Origin: Desulfosediminicola ganghwensis
GTDB lineage: Bacteria; Desulfobacterota; Desulfobulbia; Desulfobulbales; Desulfocapsaceae
Length of the DNA stretch: 64,000 nucleotides
Reading direction: 5' to 3'
Assembly: GCF_005116675.2 (NCBI RefSeq)
Contig: NZ_CP050699.1
Coordinates: forward strand, 744,001-808,000
The notes below the pieces were generated by a model. It searched no databases and had not been told where the DNA came from. It saw only the letters and a list, made by a program, of their open reading frames with translations. Both the position numbers and the translations under genes were made by a program. This document shows positions 46,883-61,994 of this stretch, one piece after another (position 1 is the stretch's first letter; each line of letters opens with the position of its first letter).

Positions 46883-46891
46883 GGTAAGAGA

Positions 46892-46931: not shown

Positions 46932-47131
46932 TCCATGGAGGATAGCATGGGACACTATTGAGAGGGTCGATAAGGATCTGTTCTGCTCTCAAGACCCATT
47001 CTAACTCTTCAAGTAACTATCTCTTCCTGTCCTTATCCATCTGTCCTCCCCTCCCTAGCGGGACAAATCGCTCTATCTTGTTATTATAATAATAGAAGCT
47101 ATTAGATTGTTTAGTAAAAAGGAGAGAGGTG

Positions 47132-48322
47132 ATGGCATATGAGGGACAGGAGGAGTTAGAGAGTTTATTCCAGTGTTGTGAGAATACAGATGATAAGAAA
47201 GAGGAACCTCTAGTAGAAGAGGATTGGGTAACTGAGGAAGAGAGGTACTGTAAGTTCAATGTATGGATAACATCCTCTGATACTGACTGGATAGAGGATC
47301 TTTACAATACATTGTATCCACTCCCTGGCTCTATGAGACACAGAGAGACCTTCCAGATAATCCTACTTAATATGGCCATGAGGAGGGACTGCATATACTT
47401 AGATCTCCATAAGAGTAGATACACTGGCACGAATCTACCAGTTTCTTTCCTCCCATCTAAGGTCTCTGAGATCTGTGGGATGCTAGAGAGGAATCGATAC
47501 CTAGAGATTGATAAGGGATACAATGTATCTGGTGGAATGAAGAAGGCCACTCTGGTAGCTCCATCCTCCTCACTACTAGATCTTATCCCGTCAGAAATAA
47601 CCTTCTCATATCAAAGAGATGGTCTCATTGTGACTAAGGATTTTACTCCCTCCTCTTATCCTCCTGATGTGGTAGAGAGGCAAGAGGCACTTGAGGCATA
47701 CAATAAGACCGTTGAACCACAGAACATGTTGTATGCCACATATAAGGGTTCCTTCGCTGTAGATGGGCGATTCACAGGCTCCTCGGTCATTTCAATGAGT
47801 AAGGAGAGGAGGCGCCATATAGCAATACAGGGGGAAAAGACTGTTGAGATAGATGTCAGTAACTGTATCCCCTTCCTTCTCTACGCTAAACATCTGTCCC
47901 AACCTGTACCCTGTGATGTGTACAGAATAGATGAATTACCTAGAGGCCTAGTCAAGAAGGCGGTGTTGATGGCTGTTAACTGTGAGAGTAGGGAAGAGGC
48001 ACGGAAGGCCATTCAGTCAGAGTTAAACCTCGGAAAGCATGGGGAGGTTAAGCAATCGGCATCATATATCCTTCAGCAGATAGAGACGATGAATCCAGAT
48101 ATCCTGGAGTATCTCTATGTGGGAGAGGGGAGGAGGCTTATGAATCTGGAGTCTTGCTGCATGACAATGTTCATGAAGATCATGCTATCAATGACTATCC
48201 CATTCTATCCAATCTATGATTCCGTCAGGGTGCCAGAGTCCTATAGAAAGGTGGCGGAAAAGGTGCTTAAAGAGGCCTTCACCGTTAATGGTGTTATGCC
48301 TGGCACCCATGTAGTTTCTTAA
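47132..48322 (+). CDS. Putative replication protein with a family-A-polymerase-like palm
   Basis: I do not recognise a named family with certainty. In the 397-residue numbering (GTG start 47129) residues 75-145 look like a winged-helix region. The second half has polymerase-like features: GRFTGSSVI then VEIDVSN (239-245, motif-A-like), LVKKAVLMAVNCESREEA (274-291, finger-helix-like) and PIYDSVRVP (361-369, motif-C-like). This order resembles single-subunit polymerases and related replication proteins of small mobile elements. I place the start at the ATG at 47132 after GGAGAG. Replication initiation or priming of the island is inference. Confidence 0.5.
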   Translation: MAYEGQEELESLFQCCENTDDKKEEPLVEEDWVTEEERYCKFNVWITSSDTDWIEDLYNTLYPLPGSMRHRETFQIILLNMAMRRDCIYLDLHKSRYTGTNLPVSFLPSKVSEICGMLERNRYLEIDKGYNVSGGMKKATLVAPSSSLLDLIPSEITFSYQRDGLIVTKDFTPSSYPPDVVERQEALEAYNKTVEPQNMLYATYKGSFAVDGRFTGSSVISMSKERRRHIAIQGEKTVEIDVSNCIPFLLYAKHLSQPVPCDVYRIDELPRGLVKKAVLMAVNCESREEARKAIQSELNLGKHGEVKQSASYILQQIETMNPDILEYLYVGEGRRLMNLESCCMTMFMKIMLSMTIPFYPIYDSVRVPESYRKVAEKVLKEAFTVNGVMPGTHVVS

Positions 48323-48399
48323 TGTATCAAGGCGGTTGAATGGTGTTGTGAGTGCATGTAAAAGAAAAGGCTTATGAACAGAGTGAAGAGGAGAGTGCG

Positions 48400-48618
48400 A
48401 TGAGCGAGCAGAGAATGGAATGCGTCATATTGATGGAATCTGGTGAGATTTATGAGTGTGGTGTTAATGATCGTGACATTATGCAAGGGTATGCATTAGA
48501 GCATGAGGAGGTCCTGAAAGTCTATTACAGCGATAGTTCAGGAGAAGTTGTTGAGGTGACAGGTGATGAAGTAGCTGTTATCTTGAACGATTTAATAGAA
48601 GAGAAGTGGTTAAACTGA
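48400..48618 (+). CDS. Small acidic hypothetical protein
   Basis: The 72-residue product (MSEQRMECVILMESGEIYEC...) is acidic, with no export signal and no motif I recognise. The ATG at 48400 has GAGGAG in front; a longer GTG start at 48352 lacks an RBS. It lies between the polymerase-like gene and the HNH-HIT gene on the same strand. Confidence 0.55.
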   Translation: MSEQRMECVILMESGEIYECGVNDRDIMQGYALEHEEVLKVYYSDSSGEVVEVTGDEVAVILNDLIEEKWLN

Positions 48619-48677
48619 GGAGCTCGTAAGGTTAGACTCACTGCTAAAACCATTGATTATGGACCTAAGGAAACGGC

Positions 48678-49685
48678 ATGAACTTCGGTGACATTTATTC
48701 ATTCATTACTGAGAAAATGAGGATGTCCCATATATATCAACCTGTCATGCTGATGGAGCTTCTGGAGCGTCGTGGAACTTGTCATCAAGCCGATATAGCT
48801 AAGGCAATCCTTAACCATGATGAGAGTCAGATAGAGTACTATACAAAGATAACCAATCAGATGGTTGGCAAGGTACTCAGGAAACATCAGATCGTGAAGA
48901 AGGATGGCCCCATATATTCCATAAATGGCTATTCTTCTCTTTCCCCTTTAGAGGTAGAAAAGATCATTCTTGCTTGCCAGGAGCGTATCATTCAGTTCAT
49001 AGAGAAGAGGCAGGATTCAGTCTGGGAGCACAGGAGAAGGGGACGTGAAGCCATAAGTGGAACCATCAGATATGAGGTCTACAAGAGAGCGAAGTTTCGT
49101 TGTGAATTGTGTGGTACCTCGGCAGATGAGAAAGCGCTGGAGATAGACCATATTATTCCTAGCATTAAGGGAGGGCCTGATGATATATCCAACTATCAGG
49201 CCCTTTGCTATAGTTGTAATGCGATGAAGAGGGATCGTGATGATACGGACTTCAGAGGTATCAGGGAATCCTATAAGAGGAGAGAGGAAGGATGTCTCTT
49301 CTGCTCACCAAAGGATATCATTGATGAGAATCGACTCTGCTATGCAATGAGGGATGGCTATCCAGTTACCCCCTTACACACTCTTATAATCCCAAAGAGA
49401 CACATATCCTCATACTTCGATTTGGGTCAAGCTGAGATGAATGCTATTACAGATCTCATTAAGAAGCAGAAAGTGTCTCTAGAGACACTAGATGAGACGA
49501 TCACGGGCTTTAATGTAGGAATTAATGATGGTACCTCTGCTGGCCAGACTATTTTCCACTGCCATATCCATCTGATACCTAGAAGAGATGGGGATGTGGA
49601 GAGTCCAAGGGGAGGAGTAAGACACACCATACCGGGCAAAGGGGATTACCCCGGTGTCTCTAGAGACACAAGAGGAGATTTATAG
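48678..49685 (+). CDS. HNH endonuclease-HIT domain fusion protein
   Basis: Three parts are visible in 335 residues: a helical, winged-helix-like N-terminus (about 1-85); an HNH nuclease (about 130-190) with zinc cysteines 142, 145, 177 and 180 and the catalytic DH at 157-158; and a HIT nucleotide-hydrolase domain (about 205-320) with the histidine triad at 294, 296 and 298 (FHCHIHLIP). All key residues are intact. The fusion is known from many genomes but its role is unclear; nuclease plus nucleotide-processing domain on an island suggests phage or plasmid defence. Confidence 0.85.
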   Translation: MNFGDIYSFITEKMRMSHIYQPVMLMELLERRGTCHQADIAKAILNHDESQIEYYTKITNQMVGKVLRKHQIVKKDGPIYSINGYSSLSPLEVEKIILACQERIIQFIEKRQDSVWEHRRRGREAISGTIRYEVYKRAKFRCELCGTSADEKALEIDHIIPSIKGGPDDISNYQALCYSCNAMKRDRDDTDFRGIRESYKRREEGCLFCSPKDIIDENRLCYAMRDGYPVTPLHTLIIPKRHISSYFDLGQAEMNAITDLIKKQKVSLETLDETITGFNVGINDGTSAGQTIFHCHIHLIPRRDGDVESPRGGVRHTIPGKGDYPGVSRDTRGDL

Positions 49686-50500
49686 ATGCAGCCACCACCA
49701 CGCTTCCCATTAGATTATCAGTTTATGAAGTGGTTTGATGGTCTCTCAATGCCACGTTCCTTAAAGGGTAGAGGGAAGATATTCTACATGACCTTAGAGG
49801 ACAATGTGATCAACTATCCGTTCTTTCAAGAGGAAGAACCAGATATCGTAGATATTCTTGAAGAGAAGATGATGTGGGATAGAGATGCTATTAAGGCCGT
49901 ACTGCTCTTCTTCTACATTATTGGTACCTTCAAGACTGTTAAGATGCATCCTGGGTATTTTGGATACGAGACTCGCTGGGCTTTTACTTACGAAATGGAT
50001 GACTTCTCCTCATACTCCAAGGACTATGAGGAGAGGCCAGAGTTTTATGAGGATATCCTTGCTGGTCGATTGACTCTGGAGGATCTGCAGGAGGCGAACA
50101 GGGTTGTGAGGAGGCATTAATATTTAGTGGTAATGATAACAAATGACCTCTCTCACCAGGGTGATTGTATCGACTACGAGTCACTCTCAGACATACGTTT
50201 GGTTCTGTAGTACATGTAGATGGCAACAAGCACAGGCAAACCATCGATCATCATTGTTGTCAATGCAGATATAACAGGATCCGTTGGTCCTCTTGCCCCA
50301 GCCTCTATCAATACGTACTTAATTGTTTCGATGATTGTCAGTATTATAAGGACTGATCCTATGATGAGGGTCCATCTTTGGACTGGGCCGCCTTCCTCCT
50401 CCACAATTGTAGAATCTGCTGTAACGGATGAATCAAGATGCTCATTGGAGGAGGCATTCCGCTGTCTATCTCCATCTTTAACTGGTGTCTCCAGAGACAC
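49473..50500. repeat. Recurring 16-bp palindrome GTGTCTCTAGAGACAC
   Basis: Perfect copies occur at 49473-49488 and 49654-49669, a one-mismatch copy at 50485-50500, and weaker partial copies near 51174, 51863 and 52352, all inside the island. The first two sit in different reading frames of the HNH-HIT gene, so protein repetition does not explain them. Confidence 0.6.
49686..50120 (+). CDS. Hypothetical protein coupled to the HNH-HIT gene
   Basis: The 144-residue acidic, aromatic-rich protein starts immediately after the HNH-HIT stop, so the two are translationally coupled. A central helical part (DIVDILEEKMMWDRDAIKAVLLFFYIIGTF) resembles a helix-turn-helix or a docking helix pair. No family recognised. 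The coupling suggests it is a partner, inhibitor or adaptor of the nuclease. Confidence 0.6.
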   Translation: MQPPPRFPLDYQFMKWFDGLSMPRSLKGRGKIFYMTLEDNVINYPFFQEEEPDIVDILEEKMMWDRDAIKAVLLFFYIIGTFKTVKMHPGYFGYETRWAFTYEMDDFSSYSKDYEERPEFYEDILAGRLTLEDLQEANRVVRRH

Positions 50501-50686
50501 TTGAATCTCACCAAAGGGATCAGGGTCACCACACTCTGGACAGACTTCAGCATCCTTTGGGATCATGTTCTGACAGATACTACAAGTCGCCTCTTGAGAT
50601 GCACCACACTTGGGGCACTTCTCAGCTCTCTTGGAGTATGGGTGATTGCATTTGGTACATTCGATTAGTAGGGACTCTGTGCTCAT
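50174..50686 (-). CDS. Double zinc-ribbon membrane protein
   Basis: The 170-residue product has two four-cysteine zinc-ribbon-like units at the N-terminus (CTKCNHPYSKRAEKCPKCG, then CSICQNMIPKDAEVCPECG), a polar linker, and two membrane helices (about 102-122 and 138-158). Cytoplasmic ribbon plus membrane hairpin suggests a membrane-tethered nucleic-acid or protein-binding adaptor. An RBS (AAAGGAC) precedes the ATG. Confidence 0.75.
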   Translation of the reverse strand: MSTESLLIECTKCNHPYSKRAEKCPKCGASQEATCSICQNMIPKDAEVCPECGDPDPFGEIQVSLETPVKDGDRQRNASSNEHLDSSVTADSTIVEEEGGPVQRWTLIIGSVLIILTIIETIKYVLIEAGARGPTDPVISALTTMMIDGLPVLVAIYMYYRTKRMSESDS

Positions 50687-50696
50687 TGCTTGTCCT

Positions 50697-51152
50697 TTAT
50701 GGATACTGGTAGCCTGCCTTCAGGCAGTCGCTCTTATCTATAATAAGGTGACCTATTAGCTGTCCTGTAGAGTGCTGGTAAACGATCCGTACAGGCACAT
50801 TCGCGATGAATAGGAACTGCTTGTATGTATCGTTGGCACAGGTGGTGTGAGTGTTCCGGTTCTTAAACTTCCTCATAACTGAGGGGGTGAGGTCCTTGTC
50901 TATATCCTCATAGGGAATGTTTGTGGAGTAGACAAAGTATATGCCACCAAGAACAGGGTGATCTTTAACAAAATACATGCTTTGCCATGTGATTGTATCA
51001 TTCAGCTTTACAGGGAGAACCTTGGTGATCTCATCAACAGTATCTTGGATCGCTCGATACTGTTTCTCCAATGACATCTCTTCTACCTTGTTGTCTGCGT
51101 TGGCTATAAAGGGAAGGCAGAGTAGAAGGAGCACTAATATCTTGCATATCAT
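50697..51152 (-). CDS. Small secreted protein, two C-terminal cysteines
   Basis: The 151-residue product has a signal peptide (1-19, ANA-D). In its C-terminal module two cysteines flank PVRIVYQHSTGQLIGHLIIDKSDC. The layout parallels the chromosomal protein at 25280-25732 (ID-K-x-x-C ending, IG turn, aromatic Y-x-Y strand). It lies 10 nt downstream in a head-to-tail series of exported proteins. Function unknown. Confidence 0.65.
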   Translation of the reverse strand: MICKILVLLLLCLPFIANADNKVEEMSLEKQYRAIQDTVDEITKVLPVKLNDTITWQSMYFVKDHPVLGGIYFVYSTNIPYEDIDKDLTPSVMRKFKNRNTHTTCANDTYKQFLFIANVPVRIVYQHSTGQLIGHLIIDKSDCLKAGYQYP

Positions 51153-51261
51153 ATACCAGATATCCTCTGTGATTGTGTCTCTACAGTTAGTTCATGTATA
51201 CCATTCACGATCAACTCTCATCCTCGACATCCTGAAGCATCATTGGGATTTTCTAAACATT

Positions 51262-51729
51262 CTATAACTTGTTAATGCTTAAGTATTTAGCTGAGAAGGT
51301 ATCCAATTTATCGTAAAGGCCCCCCATGATATACTCCTTACTATTGGCATGGGCACCTACTGTATTATCCGTCCATACAGTAGCGTACTTTACATATTCC
51401 TTCCCCTTGACCCGGTAGGTTATTTTTCGCCTGAACTCAAGACCTGTACTAAACGCTGTCTTAGTTGCTACCACTTTAACAAATAGATAATATGGATCAT
51501 CTTCAGTTGTAACGGGTGTAAGCCCGTTTCTTCTTAAGCGGAGTTCTACCTTTGATTGCAGAAGTTCTCGAGTCAAACCGATTGATTTGCAATCATCATC
51601 CAATGTTCCGTAAAACATCTCGACTGTTATATCCCCATTGGTTTCTAGCCCACTACCCTCTTTGCTCAACACATTCACAGGAGTGGAGATCATTATAAGT
51701 GCGATAACAACCTTTAAAACGTAAGTCAT
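51262..51729 (-). CDS. Secreted hypothetical protein
   Basis: From the ATG at 51729 (GGAG 10 bases before; an ATG three codons upstream is too close to it) the product has 155 residues. It has a signal peptide ending near VLSK and a beta-rich body with LTRELLQSKVELRLRRNGL, which recalls periplasmic proteins with a YbbD/LysM-like lipoprotein fold, though I cannot name a family. It sits in the island's exported-protein cluster. Confidence 0.55.
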   Translation of the reverse strand: MTYVLKVVIALIMISTPVNVLSKEGSGLETNGDITVEMFYGTLDDDCKSIGLTRELLQSKVELRLRRNGLTPVTTEDDPYYLFVKVVATKTAFSTGLEFRRKITYRVKGKEYVKYATVWTDNTVGAHANSKEYIMGGLYDKLDTFSAKYLSINKL

Positions 51730-51883
51730 ATCTAACATTCTCCAATTCTTAGTCCAGCACTCTTGATTAGTATTTATATCCCTGGTGAGGCAATCCCTTT
51801 AGTCAACACTCCAAGCAAACATTCTCTGTCCAGATATATGGGGTTTCCTCGAGGGGAGAGAGATGTCCATAGAGACACAAGGC

Positions 51884-52426
51884 TCAATTAGCCTTCATGA
51901 CCTTCCTTACCTTCTTCCAATCTATGGGAGCCGCCTCTGCCACATTCAGTTCTCGCAACTCACCATAGAAAAGCACATAGAATGCCTCACCCTCTCCTGA
52001 TGGGCAGCAAGAGGGGTCCCAAGTCCCATCCTCTCTTATAGTGCTGAAGCGAGTATCGAAGGTTATCACTCCATTCTCTATTGACTTGAAGGAGAGAGAA
52101 CGAGATGACTTGCCACCCACGAGGATATCTGAGGAGAACTTGAGTCCTTCTTCTGTTCGGAGAAAGACTGCAAGGAAGGAGGAGTAGTTGTTGCCACCAC
52201 CTCCTATACCTTCAAGGGTATAGAGTATGGCTAGGTCGTCTATACCGTCTTGGTCAAGATCACCTGTCATGAAGCTACGTGCGTTCAAATACTCTGAAGC
52301 TTTAAGTTGAACCTCCTGCCTATCAATGTATGATTGAATAGTGAGGCTATCAGTATCTCTAGAGAAAGTTAAAGAACTGGTGAACACGATTGCAGTAACG
52401 ACGATGGCAGAGATTAAGTGATTCAT
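51884..52426 (-). CDS. Secreted protein with a VCBS/FG-GAP-like segment
   Basis: The 180-residue product has a signal peptide (1-22). The segment FMTGDLDQDGIDDLAILYTLEG (23 residues long, residues about 52-73) has the Asp-rich calcium loop of FG-GAP/VCBS-type repeats. A single such unit is present. Function unknown; it is part of the exported-protein cluster. Confidence 0.6.
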   Translation of the reverse strand: MNHLISAIVVTAIVFTSSLTFSRDTDSLTIQSYIDRQEVQLKASEYLNARSFMTGDLDQDGIDDLAILYTLEGIGGGGNNYSSFLAVFLRTEEGLKFSSDILVGGKSSRSLSFKSIENGVITFDTRFSTIREDGTWDPSCCPSGEGEAFYVLFYGELRELNVAEAAPIDWKKVRKVMKAN

Positions 52427-52501
52427 TGATTGTTTGACGGTTGCACGTCTAGTAACCTAGGGTTGGTGGTAAGTTTTTTCTCTGAGAGAACTTTCTTGTG
52501 T

Positions 52502-52939
52502 TTAGTTAACCGCCTTGGTGTACTGCTTGATTAAGTTCTGGCAGACGACCTCCTTGTCCATAAGACCTTGACTGAAGAGCATTATCGTCAGGTTGTCAGA
52601 TGTACTTTGTACCTTGCTGCCTATCGCCATACCCCCCAGTGCTGTCGTTATCGTATCGTCACCCCACTCGTAGTCGGCAAGTGAGACAGCCAACTCCCCT
52701 GCAACCTTTTCTGAGTAGTGATTCTTTATATCCGTGTACCCACAGCTGAGGGCGGAGCCAGCCAACATGACATCTCGCCCTATCGCCTCACTCTCAGCCA
52801 TCTCTTGCAGTATCTTAGTGGATCTGTACTTGTAAGGATTCTCTGCAATTGCGTTGGTGCACCCGATGGTCAATCCGAGCATAAGTGCTGCTACAATTCT
52901 TTTACTCAGTTCACTCTGGTTCTGTCGGTATGTGATCAT
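52502..52939 (-). CDS. Exported hypothetical protein
   Basis: The 145-residue product has an N-terminal hydrophobic segment with LTIGC (about residues 23-27), which could be a lipobox, or a signal peptide cleaved after AIA. The body is helical with two cysteines (SCGY and VCQN) that could pair. No family recognised. Confidence 0.55.
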   Translation of the reverse strand: MITYRQNQSELSKRIVAALMLGLTIGCTNAIAENPYKYRSTKILQEMAESEAIGRDVMLAGSALSCGYTDIKNHYSEKVAGELAVSLADYEWGDDTITTALGGMAIGSKVQSTSDNLTIMLFSQGLMDKEVVCQNLIKQYTKAVN

Positions 52940-52988
52940 TCTTATAGCCTTAGAAGCTGTGCTGCTTGTACCGTGAGTATGTTAAGCG

Positions 52989-53297
52989 TTATCGTTTAAG
53001 ACAAACCCCTTCAATACTTCCAGAACTCTTTACACACTCAGAACCAGGGCCACAATCGGTGTCGAAGCTACAGGTATCACCATAGGTTCCATTAATATCT
53101 CTTGGAGAATATACTGGCTTATCATCATTCTTGTTGCCTGGCGAGATACCACCAGTGCATACACCATACAGTGACCCGCTTGCTTTGAGGCACTTGCTTC
53201 CTGGGCTACAGTCTGTATCAAATTGGCAAGCTGAGGCAAGTGAGCAACTGAGGGCGATAGTGGTGATGGCAACGGTGATGATTAATGCTCTGGACAT
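52989..53297 (-). CDS. Secreted cysteine-rich protein with two Dickkopf-like repeats
   Basis: From the ATG at 53297 (GGAGAC before it) the product has 102 residues: a signal peptide (about 1-22) and two copies of C-x-FDTDC-x-PGS-x-C-x-K-x-SGS-x-x-GVC separated by a 25-residue linker. Each unit has four spaced cysteines, as in small disulfide-stabilised domains. The duplication is recent enough to be obvious. Function unknown. Confidence 0.65.
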   Translation of the reverse strand: MSRALIITVAITTIALSCSLASACQFDTDCSPGSKCLKASGSLYGVCTGGISPGNKNDDKPVYSPRDINGTYGDTCSFDTDCGPGSECVKSSGSIEGVCLKR

Positions 53298-53424
53298 GGT
53301 ATGTCTCCTTTTGTGAATCATAACGAGCGAATGGCGCATAATGCTTACGTAAAGTTATTTGGTATAGCACTTGTCCCACAGAGTTGCAATGCCACTGAGT
53401 GGTAGCTTGTTTCTAGGTACACCT

Positions 53425-54003
53425 CTACACCTTTAAGTTCTCTAACTCCTCTCTAAATCTCTTCGCCCACCACTCGAGATAATGCTGGTTACAGCAGAAC
53501 GACTTCTCTACCTTAACAGAGATGGAACGCCTAGAGCGTTGTCCACATATCGAACACTCAGCATTCTTCTGTTGGATCTTAGGTTTCACAGTGCCGTAAA
53601 GGGGAATCCTCATATACGTGTTGTTCTCATAGAGGCCTGTCGTGAACTTGACGCCCTTATACTCTGAGATGCCATGTGTCTCAGTGGCTAGGATGTGCCT
53701 AAAGTTGTTAGGACTTGAAGGATTACGTTCTCTGTTAAAGCTAGGGCACTTGGCCATCGGTAAAGCAGCCTTCATGTCACCTTTGTGTTCCCTCAGGTAG
53801 AAGCGCTTGAGCATACCAGTCGAGCAGTATTTGTATCCTATCTTGATGGTTTCAATAGACTCGCCTTTGATCTCCCCCTCCTTTATATACCTCCGGAGAT
53901 ATCCAGGCGTTATAGGGGTACTGATTGATGCATTCCATGCATCCAAGAGTTCATGGTAAGTAAGTTCTTCGCACTTCCAGTTACAGCATTCATCACAAGA
54001 CAA
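53425..54003 (-). CDS. Zinc-finger/HTH-like protein near the island's right end
   Basis: The 192-residue product begins with a Cys cluster (MSCDECCNWKC). It then has a helix-turn-helix-like stretch (ITPGYLRRYIKEGEIKG) and a basic middle, and ends with a treble-clef-like pair (CSICGQRSRRS and FCCNQHYLEWW). Position near attR and a small DNA-binding look fit an excision or regulatory factor, but I cannot assign a family. Confidence 0.5.
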   Translation of the reverse strand: MSCDECCNWKCEELTYHELLDAWNASISTPITPGYLRRYIKEGEIKGESIETIKIGYKYCSTGMLKRFYLREHKGDMKAALPMAKCPSFNRERNPSSPNNFRHILATETHGISEYKGVKFTTGLYENNTYMRIPLYGTVKPKIQQKNAECSICGQRSRRSISVKVEKSFCCNQHYLEWWAKRFREELENLKV

Positions 54004-54534
54004 TAGCGATTCCTCCTGTTAGCCTGAGATTGGATCTACACGACCTCTACGATCTGACTGAGTTTAGGCGCTGGTTCACTACATCAGCGGCTTGTGTCTT
54101 TCTGCAGGACGCACTTCACCCTTAGGCCTAGTCATAGTGGCTTGTCCTTTATGTAGTGGTATCAGATGATTGGTAGCTTAGAGAGGCCTCTCGTAGCAGG
54201 GGGTAACTGTATACCAGAGGTCGTGAGGAATGTCAACTCGAGGCATATGCACGAATCGTGCCAGATGCCATTTGAAGCGCAAGGAGAGTCTGCCAGATAG
54301 GGAGGGGGGTTCATATGTGACAAGAGGGGTGGCCCCTGAAGAAGACCCCCTACCCCTTTCATTCTACCAAGAACTCAAAATACCTTAAGGAGAGGACTAT
54401 TGTGGTATGTACAGAAGTGCAGGTCAGAGGTGAGTTTAGCTCTGAACTCAGCATTGGCTGAGAATCTACCAGGAATCTATTCTAAGATTGGAACTGATAG
54501 ACTCAACCTTGTTAACTAACTGGAATGACAATGA
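54004..54534. other. Right-end region of the island, including a short ORF with RBS
   Basis: No normal-size gene is visible. On the minus strand an 18-residue ORF (54135 down to 54079, starting MTRPKGEVRP) is preceded by AAAGGACAAG, the same RBS block that precedes the zinc-ribbon gene at 50686. It may be a leader peptide or a decayed gene. The right part holds the AATCTACCAG repeat (near 54472) and the inverted ATCATTGTCATTCC element (54522-54535). Confidence 0.4.
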
Positions 54535-54622
54535 TCCGGAGTGGTGGTTGTTCGTAGACGCACTGGACTCAAAATCCAGCGGGGGCGACCCCGTGTCGGT
54601 TCGATTCCGACCTCCGGCACCA
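54535..54622 (+). pseudogene. Decayed tRNA-Leu copy overlapping attR
   Basis: From the acceptor stem (CCGGAG) through CCA this copies the tRNA-Leu at 45517-45603, but the D-arm is replaced (GTGGTTGTTC instead of GTGAAACTG), the first base is T instead of G, and the variable arm has one change. It should not fold as a functional tRNA. The 70-bp attR repeat is 54554-54623. Confidence 0.8.
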
Positions 54623-54628
54623 AATTAG

Positions 54629-54669
54629 AAAAGCCGCAATCTCAATTAATTGAGATTGCGGCTTTTTTT
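54629..54669 (+). terminator. Original tRNA-Leu terminator displaced to attR
   Basis: A perfect palindromic stem of 19 bp (54629-54647 with 54648-54666) ends in TTTTTTT. It follows the attR repeat immediately, as expected for the chromosomal tRNA terminator pushed away by the island's insertion. Confidence 0.9.
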
Positions 54670-54731: not shown

Positions 54732-55742
54732 TTGGTTGTTGACGGCACTGGAATTTCAATGCCCGACACAGAGGCTAACCAGGAGGCATGGCCTCAATCA
54801 GCAAGTCAAAAACCAGGATGCGGTTTCCCGTCGGGGCGTATCTGTGCCTGCTTTTCATTGGAGACAGGCGCTTTATTGAGTTACGCAGTTGGGAATAAGA
54901 AGAGCAGTGAACTCCCTTTATTCCGTACACAATGGGCTACGTTTGCCAAAGGCGATATCTTCATGGGGGATAAAGGGTTTTGCAGCTATTATGATATTGC
55001 AAAACTGAAGGAACGCGGAGTTGATTCTGTCGTCACACTTGCTCGCAGAAAACCTGCCAATTCGCACACCTCAATCAAAGTGTTTGCACCAGATGATCTG
55101 CTTATTGCCTGGCCACGCCCTAAATATAACCCAGGATTGTCCTATGATCGTGAAACCCTACAAAAGCTCCCGGAGCAGTTGTTTCTCCGACAGATCAAGG
55201 TACAAGTTAAGCAACCTGGCTTCAGGGCAAAAGAATTCTACATTGTCACGACTCTGACAGATCCTGCCAGGTACACAAAATCGGAAATAGCTGAACTTTA
55301 CCTAAGACGATGGTTAGTGGGACTTTTCTTCAGAGATATTAAAACAACAATGGGTTTTGACATTCTCAGGTGTCAGACACCAGAGATGGTTCGTAAAGAA
55401 ATTCTCATGTATTTCATAGCTTACAACTGTATTCGGCGGCTGATGTTTCAGGCTTCTGAATCCGCAAAAGTGAAGCTTCGATCTATCAGTTTTAAAGGAA
55501 GTTTGCAGGCAATTCGCAATTGGGCACCAAGACTGACTACCGCCAACTTGAGCAAGAGCGAGAAACGTTCGATGTTGGCAGATTTAATGATTGCCGTTGC
55601 AAGCAGCAAAGTTTTCCATCGCCCAGGTAGAAGTGAGCCCAGGTGTCTCAAGCGACGATTAAAACCTTACCAGTTGCTCACTAAACCAAGGGGCGAAATG
55701 ATAGAAATTCAACATCGGAGCAGGTATGAAAAAAGGGCTTAA
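54732..55742 (+). pseudogene. IS4-family transposase, 5'-truncated
   Basis: The 336-residue frame holds the IS4 DDE core: first Asp in VVDGTGISMPDT, second in FMGDKGF, then YLRRWLVGLFFRDIK (Y-x2-R-x3-E-like region with Phe where Glu is usual). The frame stays open upstream to about 54672, directly abutting the tRNA terminator, so the N-terminal region and the left IS end are missing. The usual catalytic Glu appears changed (LFFRDIK rather than xxxExDIK). Both points argue that it is dead. Confidence 0.75.
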
Positions 55743-55852: not shown

Positions 55853-56344
55853 TTAAATAATAAATTTTGAAATAAATTTTGCAGTAAAATCATATACGGC
55901 CTTCCACGCTTTCTTCACGTAGCTTGGCAGATTGGCACAATCATGCTGAGTACTCTTTTTAGGCGGCAAGTCGTAGTCAACTTTTCTACGATTTACCTCG
56001 TCAAAAAATAGCTCCCTTCGATATCGATCACGAGCACGGTTTCGCTCAACTTTTCTTTGACTCATGCTACCTGCCCATATGACTTGGTTCCGCTCAATCC
56101 AATAATGTGACCGACACTTATAACTCCAGTTTCCAATCGAAGGATACAGTGTGACCTTGCCCCCGGCCAACTGTAGAGACCAATCAGCCGGATTCAGAGG
56201 TGTAACGACTTCTTCTCCACAACCACAACAGCATTTATGAACAGCAGTTTTATATCGTTGTGAAATGTAAAGAGTACCATCATCGATTTGCTCAGGTACG
56301 GTTTCAACAAATCGATGTGCTATCCTGTTTCGCCGAATTCCCAT
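55853..56344 (-). CDS. DUF6527 family protein of a ubiquitin-like operon
   Basis: The 163-residue product has a cysteine cluster (KCCCGCGEE, residues 37-45), W-S-L in PADWSLQL, the motif YPSIGNW and CRSHYWI (Cys77, His80), a probable zinc site. I recognise the pattern as DUF6527, whose genes recur next to ThiF/E1 and multiubiquitin genes. Its start overlaps the E1 stop (TAATG), so it is coupled. Biochemical role unknown. Confidence 0.75.
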   Translation of the reverse strand: MGIRRNRIAHRFVETVPEQIDDGTLYISQRYKTAVHKCCCGCGEEVVTPLNPADWSLQLAGGKVTLYPSIGNWSYKCRSHYWIERNQVIWAGSMSQRKVERNRARDRYRRELFFDEVNRRKVDYDLPPKKSTQHDCANLPSYVKKAWKAVYDFTAKFISKFII

Positions 56345-57534
56345 TACACGCCTAACATTTCATCACGAGTAAGCTGATGCGTGTTAATCACATAAGCTGA
56401 TTGGTGTTCTTGGTAATTATCCTGGTAATAGCCACAGTATTTTTTCCACTTCACAACGGCCATACTTGCAATTAACGAATTCATATCTGCCACCTGAATA
56501 TTACTCCCATATAGGTCGTCAGCATCATCTCCATGAAGAGACACGTGGTCTGCAAAATGCGCTGATTTTTCAGGTGTACTCATTGTGACCCTCCCGGTAC
56601 CGACTATGCACAGCTGTTCCTCGACCAGCTCAAGCTCCATACCAACATCAATAAAAGGTATACTGCAACCATTAAGAAAATCAGACACAAGTTTACGAAC
56701 CACAGGCTTATCGACGCATAGGAATACAAAGTCAAAATCAGATAGATCGTCCACGTTACCGTCATCGATGTAGTATGGATGCGGAACAATACCTCTACGC
56801 ATTTCTTTATACATTTCAGAAAAGTACTCCACTTTCAGTAGTTTTCGTTTCAAACAACTTATTGAAGCAGCTCCAGGGGCACGAAAAGCATTATGCTGTA
56901 AAAAATCGTCTCCATCAAATAAGTGGATTTCTCGGACGTGAGTTTTAGCTACGAGGTCAAGTACATAAGACCCACTTCCGCCCAATCCAACGAGAGCAAC
57001 CCTTTCCACAGCTAACTTTTTAGCCAAACCCCCTATTCCAACACGGCTCGACGCGGAGTCACGATAACAGAATACGGAATCCTCTTCGCTTGCGAGAACT
57101 GGTTTAAATGTTCGTGCCGTAACTGTGGCGTCAATCGCTCTGGCTTGAGCAGAGATTATCTCTTCATACCTCGTCATCTTCTCAAAATAGTCTTCATAAT
57201 AACCAACCGGAGGTTTACATGAAAATCTGTGATGAACGACGAGACCATCGCATAATGTTTGCGTTGCGGTAGTGTGCCGAATGGCCGAAATAATTGAACC
57301 GTCCTTCTTACATGGATGCTCTCCCACAAACCAGACCTGATGATTTCCCGGTCGTGTAGTGCGATCATTGTTCAGAGTCAAATCCGTCACAAGAGCTCCA
57401 TAGGTTATCTCGCTTTTCGAATTAACATATGGAACTGAGTGTAGGATCAAGAAGCACTCTTTCACCTCCACCTCGTATCCTTCATCCACCAGTTTCCGCA
57501 AATCAGAATTAAGATCGATCAGTTTTGTTGACAT
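56344..57534 (-). CDS. ThiF/E1-like adenylyltransferase with E2-like N-terminal region
   Basis: From the ATG at 57534 it has 396 residues. Residues 1-145 match the E2-like DUF6791-type region (LVDEGYEVEV, SVPYV, CKPPVGYYEDYFEKM). Residues 165-390 form a ThiF adenylation domain: nucleotide loop GLGGSGS (183-189), DGDD (207-210), Asn215, Arg218 and FLCVDK (271-276). It should activate the C-terminus of the adjacent ubiquitin-like protein. The start overlaps the multiubiquitin gene's end by 26 nt. Which cysteine carries the thioester is not clear (106, 290 and 309 are candidates). Confidence 0.85.
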   Translation of the reverse strand: MSTKLIDLNSDLRKLVDEGYEVEVKECFLILHSVPYVNSKSEITYGALVTDLTLNNDRTTRPGNHQVWFVGEHPCKKDGSIISAIRHTTATQTLCDGLVVHHRFSCKPPVGYYEDYFEKMTRYEEIISAQARAIDATVTARTFKPVLASEEDSVFCYRDSASSRVGIGGLAKKLAVERVALVGLGGSGSYVLDLVAKTHVREIHLFDGDDFLQHNAFRAPGAASISCLKRKLLKVEYFSEMYKEMRRGIVPHPYYIDDGNVDDLSDFDFVFLCVDKPVVRKLVSDFLNGCSIPFIDVGMELELVEEQLCIVGTGRVTMSTPEKSAHFADHVSLHGDDADDLYGSNIQVADMNSLIASMAVVKWKKYCGYYQDNYQEHQSAYVINTHQLTRDEMLGV

Positions 57535-57778
57535 TGAATATAGTCCCATTTTTGATAGTAACTTTTTGACCTTCGACCAGGGAGCCGTCGCGACCATGCT
57601 GGTTAGAATAAGTAACTGTAAATACGACCCTTTCTGCTGGAGTTTCGCTAGGATACGCCAACTGAACAACTTGCAAGTAAGTCAGATGATGTTCTGTGAC
57701 CTCTCTCGGTCTACCGTTTACGATGATTGAGTAAGTTTTGTTGTGATCATGACACGAACCAGAATTCTTCCCGTTCAT
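57509..57778 (-). CDS. Multiubiquitin-type ubiquitin-like protein (single domain)
   Basis: The 89-residue product holds one beta-grasp unit of the multiubiquitin kind: YSIIVNGRPREV, LTYLQVVQLAYP, VVFTVTYSN, and the terminal GSLVEGQKVTIKNGTIFNV. It ends in NKTDRS with no Gly-Gly. I use the ATG at 57778 with AGAGG seven bases upstream; a TTG precedes it by one codon. It is the presumed modifier for the adjacent E1-like enzyme. Confidence 0.82.
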   Translation of the reverse strand: MNGKNSGSCHDHNKTYSIIVNGRPREVTEHHLTYLQVVQLAYPSETPAERVVFTVTYSNQHGRDGSLVEGQKVTIKNGTIFNVNKTDRS

Positions 57779-57792
57779 CAATGCACCTCTTT

Positions 57793-58489
57793 CTGCTTAA
57801 GTTAACCTGTTTAATCAGGCAGTTTAAAAAAAGACCGCTTATGCGATCTGTCCTTAAGCTACACCAACACTCTGCTTAACGCAAGCAGTTTAATCAGATT
57901 TCCCCAAATTTATTTGATGGCGCGATAAACGTATTCAATTCCACCCGATTCAGCTGCCTCTTTAGCTCCAAGCACAATTCCTTGAAGCAACATTTTTTTG
58001 AGCTTACTACTCGCATTTTGTGCAGATATATTAAACTTCTCAGCTACTTGTGACGTCGTCGTAGTGCCAACTTCCATAATATACGACAAAAGGTCTTTCG
58101 CACTGGCATTCAAAGCAGGACCAATCACTTCATAACTACCTTGACTCAATACGATAATCGGCTGCCCCTTAGCAATAGCAGCATAATTCCAGTTATCTAA
58201 GAGGTCGGTAGACACAAAGTCCTGTAAGAAAAAACCTATTTCTCCTTTTTTAGCTTTGATTAGAGAGACAACACTTTCTCTTGGAAACGACGCATCGGTT
58301 GCTCGAACTCCAGCGAGAGAGATACCGAAAATATTCTCTCCAGGATACTTGTCCAGCTCAGCCATGAGTTTAACATAAACTTCTCGACCTTCCTGGTTAC
58401 CAATAGCGATATCAGAACCAATAAGGTCAAAGAGCTTTATAAGTACTTGTTTTTTAGAGTCCATCTGCTTAAGTTAACCTGCTTAATCA
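57793..58489 (-). repeat. Three copies of a 25-nt intergenic repeat
   Basis: Copies lie at 57793-57817, 57872-57896 and 58465-58489. The first and third differ at one base; the second shares both ends (CTGCTTAA...TTTAATCA) but differs in the centre. Each sits between operon genes: one touches the STAS-like ORF start, one lies just upstream of the multiubiquitin RBS, and one follows the STAS-like gene's stop. The core contains the palindrome GTTAAC. Confidence 0.75.
57910..58464 (-). CDS. STAS-like/winged-helix protein
   Basis: The 184-residue product begins with a STAS-like fold similar to the DUF4325 group (IFGISLAGVRATDASFPRESVVSLI) and ends with a winged helix (about 120-182; TTTTSQVAEKFNISAQNASSKLKKMLLQGIV). 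Paired with a GHKL ATPase gene directly upstream, it resembles anti-sigma/STAS switch pairs, here with a DNA-binding end. It may regulate the operon or act as sensor in the ubiquitin-like system; this is inference. Confidence 0.65.
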   Translation of the reverse strand: MDSKKQVLIKLFDLIGSDIAIGNQEGREVYVKLMAELDKYPGENIFGISLAGVRATDASFPRESVVSLIKAKKGEIGFFLQDFVSTDLLDNWNYAAIAKGQPIIVLSQGSYEVIGPALNASAKDLLSYIMEVGTTTTSQVAEKFNISAQNASSKLKKMLLQGIVLGAKEAAESGGIEYVYRAIK

Positions 58490-59419
58490 CTCTGGGTCAA
58501 CAAAAAAATCAAAACAAAAATGAGATCCTAGTATTCTTGGCAGATCTAGTACAGGCGTCACTCTCACTAGTTCACCTTCTTTATATTCGAAGTTTAGACA
58601 AAATCGTTCTTGTCGTACAGTCAACTCAGCATCAAACTTCATAGCTTGTTTACGGCTACTTTCAAACCCTAAACCACGCCCAGAGCCAAATCTACTAATA
58701 CCACCTTCAGTTAATGCTGTTTGAACAAGTCCGACGTCTGATTCAAGACTCTCTTCTTTATAACGTTTATAGAGTTTTGGGTGATGCTTTTGCAGCGATG
58801 GTCTCAAAGTTCTCGCTATTCCGAGGCCACTATCAGAAACAACAGTCTGAATATGCTTCCTTCGCCCCACATACCTCTGCAACGAGGCAAAACCAAAAAT
58901 CGGTGATTCGCTATGTTCGAAAACATTCCCAATCAATTCTCCAAAAACAGTAAGTGCTGCTATTTCATACCGAGCATCAGACTGTTGAACAAAGCGCTGT
59001 TGCAGTTGAACCACTAGATCCTTGTTCTCTTCATTCGGATCAATCGCACCGAACTCTACAAGAGCATCACTATTCCCCTTATACCTCGCGGCACCTGAAA
59101 ACCGAGGTCTATCAGGAACAACCTGTACTTGATCATCGAGATGATCGAAAAATCCCGCACGACTTAGGAACAATTTCGTGCTGGCACACTCGGTCAAATC
59201 AACTGTAACTTTTTTACCGATATAAATTAGTTGATTTAGCAACGCTAATAACCTAGCCGCCACAATCAATAATATTTTGCAGCCATTAGGAATTACAACC
59301 AAAACAGAAGAGCAGTTACTGTCAATCAAGCAACCAGACTGAGATAAACTCTTCTCAAAAGATTCTCGCGTGACCCAGCAATCAGCCTCCAAGATTAACT
59401 TCTGCTCATTGGGTTCCAC
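58487..59419 (-). pseudogene. GHKL ATPase, 3' part of a gene split by IS66
   Basis: The 310-residue open part has a STAS/DUF-like N-terminal segment and a GHKL ATPase fold: N box ELIGNVFEHS (161-170), G1 DSGLGIA (196-202) and G2 FGSGRGLGFESS (244-255), without a histidine phospho-acceptor. The apparent GTG start at 59419 lies inside the target duplication; the true start and first 52 codons are on the far side of the IS66 (61839-61994). Intact, the protein would have 362 residues and would be the first gene of the ubiquitin-like operon. Confidence 0.85.
59412..59419. repeat. 8-bp target duplication of IS66, left
   Basis: GGTTCCAC here is repeated exactly at 61831-61838, directly outside both IS ends. 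Eight bases is the size made by IS66 elements. Confidence 0.95.
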
Positions 59420-59430
59420 GTAAGCGGTAA

Positions 59431-61002
59431 TTAAACCCCACTCACATTTCCAGCTATTCGTAGATCGTCAGCTTTTAAATTCATCGGCAAAAGTTTCAAC
59501 AGCTCTGAACGAGATTCTGCAAACGGTAATTTTTCAAATAGATATCGAAGGTAGTTATACGGTTCCAAATTATTGGCCTTGGCTGTTTCAACCAGGCTAT
59601 AGATCACGGCGCTCGCCTTAGCACCTTCCTGTGTTCCTGCAAACAGCCAGTTTTTTCTGCCAACGACAAATGGGCGTATTGCGTTCTCAGCGGCATTATT
59701 GTCCGGCGTCATTTCAGGAATATCGAGGTAGACCAATAAGCGTTTCCACTGGTTGAGGGTATAATTCACCGCAGATCCAAGCAAACTCTTCGGTGTCACT
59801 TGGCTAGACTTTTTGCTCAGCCAAAGGAAGAAATCTTCCAGAATCGGCCGAGCCTTTTTTCGACGCAAGGCAAGCAGGTCTTCATCTGCAAGACCTTGTT
59901 TAGCTGCCTCTTTTTCAATTGCATAAATTTGTCGAATATAGTTCAGCGCTACATCGGTGCTGCCCGCCTTTTTGGTTTTGCCACGACCTTTTTGTGCATC
60001 AACAAATTTACGGCGAACATGAGCCCAACAGCCAGCGTGGGCAATATTCGGTTGCGTATCAAGAAAGTCGTACCCAGCGTAACCATCTGATTGCACGGCT
60101 CCACGATATCCCGCAAGCAGCTCCCTTGCAATTTTGGCTGAACGACTTGGAGCATAATGATAGATCAGGCCGGGATGATGTGGATCACCACCGCGACATA
60201 TCCACATATACGATTTAGTTGTTGGTGACCGCCCCGGTTCAGCCAGAACCTGAACCGAGGTTTCATCGATATTGATTAACGGACCGGAATGAATCTCTCG
60301 CCACAGCAGTTCAAGAAGTGGTGTGCAGGCACCGGCAGCTTTCATTGCCCAATTAGCCATGGTTGCCCTGGGTATTTCAGCTCCCAGCCGGGAAAATTGT
60401 CTTTCCTGCCGGTAAAATGGCAGTGCATCACAGAATTTTGCAGTAAGTATATGGGCGAGTAAGCCCGCGGTAGCAATTCCCTTGCTGATAATCTGCTTTG
60501 GCGGTGGTGCAATTTTCACCACTGGCCCTTCAGACTCCAATCCTTCACAGGCTTTACAAGCATATTTAGGGCGAATATGACGCACAACCCGTATAATAGC
60601 TGGGACGATATCCAACTTTTCGGAAATATCCTCACCTATACGATCCAGCTCCGCCCCACAATTGCAGACTTTATCATCTTCGGGAATGTCATGTACGATT
60701 TCGACCCTGGGCAGGTTAGCCGGTAACGGCTTGCGGCCTCGTTTCGCTCGAGTATGTTCAGGGACTTCAACAACCTCGGCAACTGGCTCAACCTCAGGTT
60801 CAGGCATGTCAAAGAGAGGCAGTTGCATCACGCCTGCTTCGGCTCCTCCTTTTTCACTTTTTTTGCCAAACAGTTTGGCATAGAGTAGACGAACCTGCTC
60901 TCGTAAAAGCTCGGTTTCCCGCTCGTAACGACGTTGGGTTTCAACGAGAAGTCGTTTGAGTTCTGCCGGGTCATCAGGAAGGTTTGCTGTATCGAAATTC
61001 AT
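59431..61002 (-). CDS. tnpC: IS66 transposase TnpC
   Basis: From the ATG at 61002 the product has 523 residues: an N-terminal coiled coil/leucine-rich helix (ELKRLLVETQRRYERETELLREQVRLLYAKLFGKK; positions 12-46), a zinc-binding region (CNCGAEL, CKACEG), and the IS66 DDE domain (NIDETSVQV, QSDGYAGYD, PDNNAAENAIRPFVVGRKNW). Intact. The ORF reads 19 codons further upstream, without conserved sequence. Confidence 0.95.
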   Translation of the reverse strand: MNFDTANLPDDPAELKRLLVETQRRYERETELLREQVRLLYAKLFGKKSEKGGAEAGVMQLPLFDMPEPEVEPVAEVVEVPEHTRAKRGRKPLPANLPRVEIVHDIPEDDKVCNCGAELDRIGEDISEKLDIVPAIIRVVRHIRPKYACKACEGLESEGPVVKIAPPPKQIISKGIATAGLLAHILTAKFCDALPFYRQERQFSRLGAEIPRATMANWAMKAAGACTPLLELLWREIHSGPLINIDETSVQVLAEPGRSPTTKSYMWICRGGDPHHPGLIYHYAPSRSAKIARELLAGYRGAVQSDGYAGYDFLDTQPNIAHAGCWAHVRRKFVDAQKGRGKTKKAGSTDVALNYIRQIYAIEKEAAKQGLADEDLLALRRKKARPILEDFFLWLSKKSSQVTPKSLLGSAVNYTLNQWKRLLVYLDIPEMTPDNNAAENAIRPFVVGRKNWLFAGTQEGAKASAVIYSLVETAKANNLEPYNYLRYLFEKLPFAESRSELLKLLPMNLKADDLRIAGNVSGV

Positions 61003-61064
61003 GTGTGCAATATACCACATAAACATTGCCATAACAGCTAGTTCAAGCAATATTTCCATAAATA

Positions 61065-61412
61065 TTATGATACTGAATTGTAGCTAAGTTGCATGTGAGC
61101 CTGTTGCACATCAAGCCCATGTAAAAGCCACTGCAAAGCAGTTTCATGGACTTCAATTACCTCTTCTTCTGATTCCGGCCAACGAAAGACATCTGCCTCA
61201 AGTCGTTTTTGCCAGATGCAAAAACCATTTTGATACCAGTAAAGGATCTTGACCATATCCCTTTTCCTATTACAGAAAGCGAACAGACTGCCCGAGAAAA
61301 GATCGAGGTCAAACTGATCTTCAACAAGAAGAGACAAACCGTTTATTGACTTGCGCATATCGGTAACCCCGAGAGCAATGTAGACTCGGACATTTGCTGG
61401 AGTGGGAATCAT
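61065..61412 (-). CDS. tnpB: IS66 accessory protein TnpB
   Basis: The 115-residue product is the IS66 Orf2 type: YIALGVTDMRKSINGLSLLVED, FAFCNRKRDMVKILYWYQNGFCIWQKRLE. It is needed for IS66 transposition. Overlaps the tnpA stop by four bases. Confidence 0.95.
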   Translation of the reverse strand: MIPTPANVRVYIALGVTDMRKSINGLSLLVEDQFDLDLFSGSLFAFCNRKRDMVKILYWYQNGFCIWQKRLEADVFRWPESEEEVIEVHETALQWLLHGLDVQQAHMQLSYNSVS

Positions 61413-61747
61413 GTTAGCTGCTCCAGGGTCTTCACAGCTTTTTTCAATTGTTCGGCGCAGAAGTCACTCTGAATTTCGAGCTTAAATCGATTGACATGTA
61501 CTGCGATGCTAGCAGGAGAAGCCGTAACAGGATTATCTGGAAGTGTTGCTGGTACAGTAAGTGGGTAAAACGCAACCTGCCTATCATTCAGGTTTTTTAG
61601 TTTGCGCTTCCAGTAGCCAAATGTCGCCAGAGCAATGCCGTGCGATTGACAATAGGTTTTCTGACTCAGATTACTTGATTGCCAAGCAGTGATATGTTTT
61701 TGCCAGTATTCCTGCTTCTGCTGTAGTTTCGAGATTGTGCCGTTCAC
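61409..61747 (-). CDS. tnpA: IS66 accessory protein TnpA
   Basis: The 112-residue product is the small basic DNA-binding Orf1: WQKHITAWQSSNLSQKTYCQSHGIALATFGYWKRK, spanning an HTH at about residues 15-50. It is the first gene of the IS66 tnpABC operon; GGAGG precedes the ATG. Confidence 0.92.
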   Translation of the reverse strand: MNGTISKLQQKQEYWQKHITAWQSSNLSQKTYCQSHGIALATFGYWKRKLKNLNDRQVAFYPLTVPATLPDNPVTASPASIAVHVNRFKLEIQSDFCAEQLKKAVKTLEQLT

Positions 61748-61826
61748 GATGTATACCTCCTTGGTTATGGTGAGGCATACTGGAACATGAATTTATAGGA
61801 CTGAAAAGATGGGGTTTATTGGTCGC

Positions 61827-61994
61827 TTACGGTTCCACAAGATACCAACAGTATTGGTCGTCTTGCTTAAAGACATCCTTGTTTTGGTGCAGGATCGAAT
61901 TTACCCTTTTCCGTTCCACATCAAGTATTTTTGCTATTTTTTTAGCTTTTATACCCGGTGTATCGTTAAGAATATTTTTTATCTTTTTCTTCAT
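61827..61994 (-). pseudogene. 5' part of the split GHKL ATPase gene, with HTH-like domain
   Basis: An ATG at 61994, preceded by AGGGA, opens a frame of 52 codons before the target duplication; inside the IS it stops after three more. The peptide (DTPGIKAKKIAKILDVERKR at 11-30, then VNSILHQNKDVF...DDQYCWYL) is a compact HTH of the kind that ends in a W-x-L strand. Joined at GGTTCCAC, codon 52 (CTT) continues in frame into GTG-GAA-CCC of the 58487-59419 part. Confidence 0.85.

What the first reader, a model, noticed from the sequence alone, without database searches (positions are those of the whole stretch)
56344..61994. Ubiquitin-like conjugation operon with a GHKL/STAS-HTH front end
Seen: a multiubiquitin-type protein, a ThiF/E1-like enzyme with an E2-like N-terminus and a DUF6527 protein in overlapping genes, preceded on the same strand by a STAS-like/winged-helix protein and an HTH-GHKL ATPase. 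Known: bacterial E1/E2/ubiquitin-like operons (Bil, Bub and related) defend against phage. Inference: here a nucleotide-dependent GHKL/STAS switch may sense a trigger and control conjugation or expression. I do not know this five-gene order as a described system.
Basis: partly seen in the sequence, partly recalled or inferred. Interest (0 to 1): 0.85.

Follow-up and report, generated by a model that had tools for sequence, protein, structure and literature searches.

The report
CapK/CapS-controlled Bub operon, IS66-split kinase
This is a recently described DNA-damage switch (a kinase and the repressor it removes) sitting in front of a bacterial ubiquitin-like operon, here with a mobile element inserted between two domains of the kinase; it is a new member of a known kind, with some detail in its control region that I did not find reported.

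Summary
The minus strand carries a GHKL kinase gene, a STAS-winged-helix gene, a single-domain multiubiquitin protein, a DUF6791-ThiF E1 and a DUF6527 protein. An IS66 element (59420-61830, 8-bp target duplication) splits the kinase's N-terminal HTH from its STAS-GHKL body. The order recurs elsewhere, so the stated refuter fails. It is also in print: the front end is CapK+CapS (PMC13373217, June 2026), where ssDNA-activated CapK phosphorylates the repressor CapS; 231 of 443 published capK genes precede Bub operons. Tested CapK, CapS and operator features are met, except the split. Published CapK tolerates loss of its HTH, so the surviving 310-aa ORF could still work. Beyond the text I read: the CapS operator is longer (TCTGnTTAA-N10-TTAAnCAGA); 29 of 32 non-redundant loci carry two copies before the effector operon, 14 of 32 also a terminator-like hairpin. 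The only three sites with at most 3 mismatches in 64 kb lie here. The core lacks the JAB and Prok-E2_E domains of solved Citrobacter Bub but keeps a tyrosine aligning with BubD Y370. Side lead: a conserved 57-aa protein (phrog_12550), absent here, accompanies CapKS, WYL and HTH-peptidase regulators.

The parts
61831..61994 (-). 5' piece of capK: N-terminal HTH domain, cut off by the IS66 element
   Evidence: BLASTP to N-terminus of Citrobacter CapK E 7e-15 and of V. gigantis CapK 7e-14
59420..61830 (-). IS66-family element (three transposase-type ORFs within 61747-59431, same direction as capK)
   Evidence: Pfam DDE_Tnp_IS66 E 3e-97 for the third ORF (the two short ORFs named by position only); 8-bp duplication GTGGAACC on both sides; six ~100% copies in genome, this one included
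58487..59419 (-). capK body: STAS-GHKL kinase ORF, 310 aa from GTG, 11 nt after the transposase stop
   Evidence: 45-48% identical to Enterobacter, Citrobacter and one Vibrio homologue; W68 and N218 of E. roggenkampii CapK align with W15 and N165
58464..58491 (-). CapS operator between capK and capS (2 mismatches to consensus; contains TTAAcTTAA)
57910..58464 (-). capS: STAS-winged-helix repressor; phosphoacceptor Ser59
   Evidence: PDB 9z72 E 2.3e-58; S59 aligns with E. roggenkampii S54; DNA-contact residues N, K, G, G kept
57871..57898 (-). CapS operator 1 after the capS stop (0 mismatches)
57826..57849 (-). terminator-like hairpin plus T run between the two operators
57792..57819 (-). CapS operator 2 (1 mismatch; contains TTAAcTTAA), before the Ubl gene
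57509..57781 (-). BubA-like single ubiquitin-like protein, 90 aa from TTG or 89 aa from ATG, ends TDRS
   Evidence: Pfam Multi_ubiq E 4e-18; PDB 9cd2 E 2.8e-8; T-x-x-S end invariant in 8 of 8 aligned
56344..57534 (-). DUF6791-E1 (BubD-like ThiF domain)
   Evidence: Pfam; NCBIfam PRK06153.1-4 E 6.5e-158; model's best PDB matches are Citrobacter BubCD; Y342 aligns with BubCD Y370
55853..56344 (-). DUF6527 protein with conserved Cys/His residues
   Evidence: Pfam E 2e-25; alignment of 14

Best explanation
A Bub-type ubiquitin-like conjugation operon controlled by the CapK+CapS DNA-damage switch. In unstressed cells a CapS dimer sits on operators around the promoter of the Bub genes and on its own promoter. 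When ssDNA appears (damage, phage), CapK is activated and phosphorylates CapS at Ser59; the dimer falls apart and the Bub operon is expressed. The terminator-like hairpin between the two operators would keep capS transcripts from leaking into the Bub genes. In this genome a recent IS66 insertion has cut capK between its HTH and its STAS-GHKL body; the body remains an open frame and may well still work if transcription from the IS and the GTG start give enough protein. Otherwise CapS would hold the operon off. Shown here: gene order, family membership, conserved residues, operators, insertion. Shown by others for a relative: ssDNA activation, phosphorylation, derepression, dispensable HTH. Inferred: that this copy does the same, the hairpin's role, and the fate of the split gene.
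For: Five-gene order on Enterobacter IncHI2 and Citrobacter plasmids; the Enterobacter CapS accession WP_001567865.1 is the protein characterised in PMC13373217. Of 44 genome loci found with CapK, 39 have a complete capS; 18 of 39 have Bub-like genes, 15 SAVED-type CBASS, 6 other. CapS solved structures match. Critical residues kept. Two extended operators after capS in 29 of 32 non-redundant loci against 0.4-0.8% in controls; hairpin in 14 of 32 against 3-5%. The only three sites with at most 3 mismatches in the 64-kb window are in this operon. Published HTH-deleted CapK works normally.
Against: CapK is split here and may be silent: no promoter or ribosome site was shown for the remaining ORF. 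K237 and K239, predicted ssDNA contacts, are not conserved (V184, R186), though they vary across the 7 aligned. The window's own hairpin is not above chance taken alone (4 terminator-like sites found in the region, 3.1 expected), and no sigma-70-like promoter passed the scan in the capS-Ubl gap. The operator consensus was read partly from these loci, so the counts lean towards it. Phage defence by Bub is unproven.
Confidence: 0.85

Rival explanations
1. The locus is a locked-off relic: the IS66 insertion abolished CapK, so CapS represses the Bub operon permanently and the genes are decaying. (This shares the CapK/CapS/Bub identity with the best explanation and differs in the present state of the copy.)
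For: Insertion splits capK; six near-identical IS copies point to recent transposition; the promoter scan found nothing directly before the remaining ORF.
Against: All downstream frames are open with conserved key residues; the insertion leaves STAS-GHKL intact in an orientation where IS transcription can continue into it; HTH deletion is harmless in the published system.
Confidence: 0.35
2. The GHKL/STAS pair is a partner-switching regulator of a sigma factor (SpoIIAB/SpoIIAA type) and not a direct repressor system.
For: Same domain pair; the paper reports structural similarity to SpoIIAB/SpoIIAA.
Against: CapS has its own winged helix with conserved DNA-contact residues and matching operators at the expected places; published capS deletion derepresses directly.
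Confidence: 0.03
3. The neighbourhood is a chance juxtaposition in a defence island and the pair does not control the Bub genes.
For: The pair also stands before CBASS and other genes, and a Bub trio also stands behind an HTH plus M78-peptidase pair.
Against: The swaps keep the same geometry, and two operators lie in the promoter gap in 29 of 32 loci.
Confidence: 0.03

Closest known systems
CapK+CapS controllers of immune operons (Chambers et al., EMBO J 2026, PMC13373217)
   Same: HTH-STAS-GHKL kinase then STAS-wHTH repressor, then a Bub operon; key residues and operators kept
   Different: capK split by IS66 between HTH and STAS; two extended operators and a hairpin in the gap where the text I read describes one wide palindrome
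Citrobacter Bub (PDB 9ea4, 9ea5, 9ea8, 9eae, 9eav)
   Same: Ubl, E1 of BubD type with aligned tyrosine (Y342/Y370); the related Citrobacter plasmid operon also has DUF6527
   Different: One Ubl not fused to an E2; DUF6791 in place of the JAB domain BubC; no Prok-E2_E (BubB) domain found
CapH+CapP and CapW/BrxR controllers
   Same: Same role before the same kinds of operon (as told in PMC13373217); L087 has a DUF6791-type Bub trio behind an HTH plus M78-peptidase pair
   Different: Different sensor and repressor proteins

Membership tests
CapK | STAS-GHKL kinase with catalytic Asn (N218) and ssDNA Trp (W68) | tested here: met
   N165 and W15, invariant in 7 of 7 aligned; numbering from PMC13373217
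CapK | N-terminal HTH in the same protein | tested here: not met
   HTH present at 61994-61836 but separated by IS66; the published kinase works without it
CapK | activation by ssDNA | not testable with these tools
   biochemistry needed
CapS | STAS-wHTH protein directly after capK with phosphoacceptor Ser | tested here: met
   22-bp gap; S59; PDB 9z72
CapS | TTAA palindromes in the capK-capS gap and the capS-operon gap | tested here: met
Bub (Citrobacter type) | Ubl plus BubD-type E1 | tested here: met
Bub (Citrobacter type) | BubC JAB domain | tested here: not met
   No JAB hit in the window E1; the Leclercia homologue has it
Bub (Citrobacter type) | BubB Prok-E2_E domain | tested here: not met
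   No hit in the window's three core proteins; present in L043 (Leclercia), L026, L028, L031 and L048
Bub | E2-like nature of DUF6791 | tested here: inconclusive
   hhalign E 0.29-0.37; whole-protein model dominated by ThiF matches
Bub (authors' own operon definition and types) | criteria of Gong 2025 and Ye 2026 | not tested
   neither paper is held

The most novel reading that the evidence does not exclude
The DUF6791-type core is a minimal Bub pathway that conjugates a ready-made Ubl (conserved T-x-x-S end) without a JAB protease, a Prok-E2_E domain or any conserved cysteine in its E1: E1 tyrosine 342 acts as the acceptor and DUF6791 replaces the E2. In this genome it is run by a naturally HTH-less CapK expressed from an IS66 element.
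Probability: 0.3. Interest if true: 0.6.

Novelty: new member of a known kind. Interest (0 to 1): 0.4.

Why it matters
It adds a case to the picture that one DNA-damage switch is plugged in front of unrelated effector operons, and shows the reverse too: related effector operons behind different switches. The insertion is a natural test of whether CapK needs its HTH. The extended two-operator layout gives a sharper sequence signature for finding CapS-controlled operons, and the JAB-less core asks how such systems transfer a ubiquitin-like protein without an obvious cysteine.

Tried and rejected
Rejected: that the order is undescribed; that the refuter holds. DUF6527 has no recognisable solved relative (model pLDDT 83, best PDB match E 1.6; sequence searches gave nothing below E 0.2). 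DUF6791 as an E2 fold: left open. Phage records: one weak CapK-like hit among 50,697 records (E 3e-3); viral contigs: one locus, L023, with both genes in part. In the window's phylum, CapK-like matches at E 1e-5 occur in 8 of 297 genomes, its own included; the stretches held for the other seven (3.0-3.7 kb) show no Bub genes, and one of them (L005) has a weak capS-like match (24%). DUF6791 occurs in 2 of 395 genomes of the phylum, its own included.

Rows dropped: of 44 genome loci, 5 were left out of the downstream count: in L024, L025, L040 and L055 the contig ends in or before capS; in L061 a large ORF that reads like a transposase (my reading, not scanned) follows capK and the contig then ends. 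Of 47 capKS loci (window, 39 genome, 7 plasmid), 32 were kept after removing capS DNA at least 80% identical. The three of 32 without two operators in the gap are L013 (IS in the gap, no site), L019 (42-bp gap, one weak site) and L062 (one site). L051 and L063 have a third weak site, and the spacings given are for their outer two. On one IncHI2 plasmid (L014) capK is present but the annotation after it is empty and I did not scan it.
Full report
What is there. The window is bases 744001-808000 of a 5.65-Mb single-contig genome. On the minus strand, downstream of an IS66 element, lie a GHKL kinase gene (59419-58487), a STAS-winged-helix gene (58464-57910), a 128-bp gap, and three overlapping genes: a 90-aa multiubiquitin protein (57781-57509), a DUF6791-ThiF E1 (57534-56344) and a DUF6527 protein (56344-55853). 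The operon is poorer in GC (0.42) than the first 45 kb of the window (0.52).

The split gene. Upstream of the IS66, 61994-61836 encodes an HTH domain that matches the N-terminus of the Citrobacter and Vibrio homologues of the kinase (BLASTP 7e-15 and 7e-14). The element is flanked by the 8-bp duplication GTGGAACC (61831-61838 and 59412-59419) and has related ends. Six copies at about 100% identity, this one included, lie in the genome, so it moved recently. It separates the HTH from the STAS-GHKL body. The body stays an open frame of 310 aa whose GTG start lies 11 nt after the transposase stop, in the same direction.

Recurrence. A protein search found the kinase in 39 of 72,556 plasmid records. 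An Enterobacter IncHI2 plasmid and a Citrobacter koseri plasmid have the same five genes in the same order. Vibrio gigantis p1 has the same pair before SAVED/nucleotidyltransferase CBASS genes; in a second V. gigantis strain it precedes other genes and a type I restriction system. Sphingobium and Acinetobacter have the pair with ubiquitin-like genes, in Acinetobacter interrupted by IS elements. A scan of bacterial and archaeal genomes gave 44 loci. Of the 39 with a complete capS, 18 have Bub-like genes (tblastn E at most 1e-4), 15 SAVED-type CBASS, and 6 something else: L033 CD-NTase, L045 SIR2/STALD, L051 DUF4747, L053 DUF1508, L058 ThiF, L063 caspase-like. Ten of the 18 have an E1 close to the window's type (nine aligned; L060 at 49%). 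The stated refuter therefore fails.

It is known. A text search found PMC13373217 (EMBO J, 9 June 2026; I read parts 1-6 of 12 of its main text, and searched the rest for terms; supplements and figures not seen). It names the pair CapK and CapS, reports 443 capK genes, 231 of them with Bub operons, and shows that ssDNA-activated CapK phosphorylates CapS at Ser54, which breaks the repressor dimer. The CapS studied there, WP_001567865.1, is the one on the Enterobacter plasmid. A further search listed 8 of 59 papers; only this one holds the word CapK among those listed.

Membership. Window CapS matches the solved structures 9z72 and 9z71 (E 2.3e-58 and 1.1e-42); that these are the paper's V. cholerae and E. 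roggenkampii proteins is my inference from chain counts. Ser54 is Ser59 here, and the DNA-contact residues N145, K151, G169 and G170 are kept. In CapK, W68 and N218 are W15 and N165; K237 and K239 are V184 and R186, and vary in the 7 aligned. In the CapS alignment, the STAS-winged-helix proteins of five large plasmids (L017, L018, L020, L021, L022) have T, C or A at the phosphoacceptor position. The kinase search gave no match at E 0.01 in any Pseudomonas plasmid and in only one Acinetobacter plasmid, pXBB1-8, so these five appear to lack capK on the same record.

Operators. The paper reports a TTAA half-site, one narrow palindrome before capS and one wide palindrome before the operon. Reading 47 loci (window, 39 genome, 7 plasmid), I find a longer palindrome, TCTGnTTAA-N10-TTAAnCAGA. 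After removing loci with capS DNA at least 80% identical, 29 of 32 have two copies (at most 5 mismatches in 16 positions) in the 152 bases from the capS end, 67-85 bp apart; dinucleotide shuffles give 0.8% and random stretches of the same loci 0.4%. A hairpin followed by a T run is found in 14 of 32 of these stretches, against 3% and 5%; in all 14 it lies between the two operators, while its sequence varies. In the window the sites are 57871-57898 (0 mismatches), 57792-57819 (1) and 58464-58491 (2); no other site in 64 kb has 3 or fewer, and four have 4, one of these overlapping the capK-capS site. The consensus was read partly from these loci, so the shuffles and the window scan are the fair controls. 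The window's hairpin alone is not above chance, and no sigma-70-like promoter passed the scan in this gap. Whether the paper's sequence logos show the longer palindrome I could not see.

The effector core. Solved Citrobacter Bub proteins (PDB names and titles) give the parts: BubA, the multi-Ubl; BubB, which covers the Prok-E2_E domain; and BubCD, in which a JAB domain (Leclercia homologue) precedes the E1. The window differs: one Ubl ending in TDRS (T-x-x-S in 8 of 8 aligned), DUF6791 instead of JAB, and no Prok-E2_E. The E1 model (pLDDT 79.6, pTM 0.57) best matches BubCD (E 1.5e-13). Tyr370 of BubCD, mutated in entry 9eav, is seen directly as the Y-to-F change at chain residue 372. It aligns with Tyr342 of the window, invariant in 12 of 12 E1s of both types although the JAB-type E1s are only 16-19% identical to the window's. 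No cysteine is invariant in the 10 DUF6791-E1s aligned. A cysteine-free transfer is thus possible but only inferred; the role of Tyr370 I know only from the entry title. In 395 genomes of the phylum, DUF6791 occurs in 2; the other (L087) has the same kind of trio behind an XRE-HTH plus M78-peptidase pair, like CapH+CapP.

Mechanism and status. The best reading is a Bub operon held off by CapS and released by CapK when ssDNA appears. The published HTH deletion had no effect, so this insertion may be tolerated; if the body is not expressed, CapS would keep the operon off. I cannot decide between these from sequence.

Side lead. In 25 of the 39 genome loci the tblastn map shows, directly after capS, a gene for a 57-aa protein: all 15 SAVED-CBASS loci (at least nine of them near-identical to one another), 7 of 18 Bub loci and 3 others. 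Across 18 copies it is on average 80% identical in protein and 70% in DNA, with two thirds of the differences at third codon positions. It has no Pfam or NCBIfam family and is phrog_12550, of unknown function. In a separate sample (369 genomes of one class; 10 with a match, one of them the CapKS locus I chose as centre), the other nine loci have next to it a WYL regulator (6: L090, L091, L093, L094, L095, L098) or an HTH-M78 peptidase (2: L096, L097); the ninth (L092) has a transposase and a holin-like gene nearby and no recognised regulator. The copy in L098 has a stop inside. Against a strict link: of 75 plasmid records with a match I looked at six; two have capKS, two WYL, one Hymenobacter plasmid has it after arsenic-resistance genes and one Phocaeicola plasmid after TIR/SIR2 genes. 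Eight viral-contig loci gave no match to the WYL or CapS references; in one, L080, it lies before a LexA-like gene. It was not found in the window's genome. In PMC13373217 'small protein' has no occurrence and YegP two; in L053 the gene after the 57-aa one is DUF1508, which I recall to be the YegP family, so the two genes are distinct. One literature search returned nothing relevant in its 4 papers.

Noticed in passing
L010:9603-9776 and relatives (not in the window): A strongly conserved 57-aa protein (phrog_12550, no Pfam) directly follows capS in 25 of 39 genome loci with different effector cores, and lies beside WYL (6) or HTH-M78 peptidase (2) regulators in 8 of 9 separately sampled loci: a possible common product of DNA-damage-controlled operons.
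   Followed up: partly
L017, L018, L020, L021, L022: STAS-winged-helix CapS-like proteins on large Acinetobacter and Pseudomonas plasmids have T, C or A at the phosphoacceptor serine, and no kinase match was found on those records.
   Followed up: partly
L087:5644-8668: A DUF6791-type Bub trio in another genome of the phylum sits behind an XRE-HTH plus M78-peptidase pair (CapH/CapP-like) and a tyrosine integrase.
   Followed up: partly
45517-54641: Two tRNA-Leu(CAA) copies, 90% alike over 88 nt, bracket a stretch with a tyrosine integrase immediately before the Bub region.
   Followed up: partly
48678-49685: Protein with HNH-nuclease-like and HIT-like halves in one chain (NCBIfam and PADLOC partial matches), inside the tRNA-Leu island.
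   Followed up: no
49474, 49655, 50486, 51864: Four copies of a palindrome like GTGTCTCTAGAGACAC spread over the same island, operator-like.
   Followed up: no
54732-55742: DDE transposase gene (DDE_Tnp_1) just downstream of the Bub operon on the other strand.
   Followed up: no
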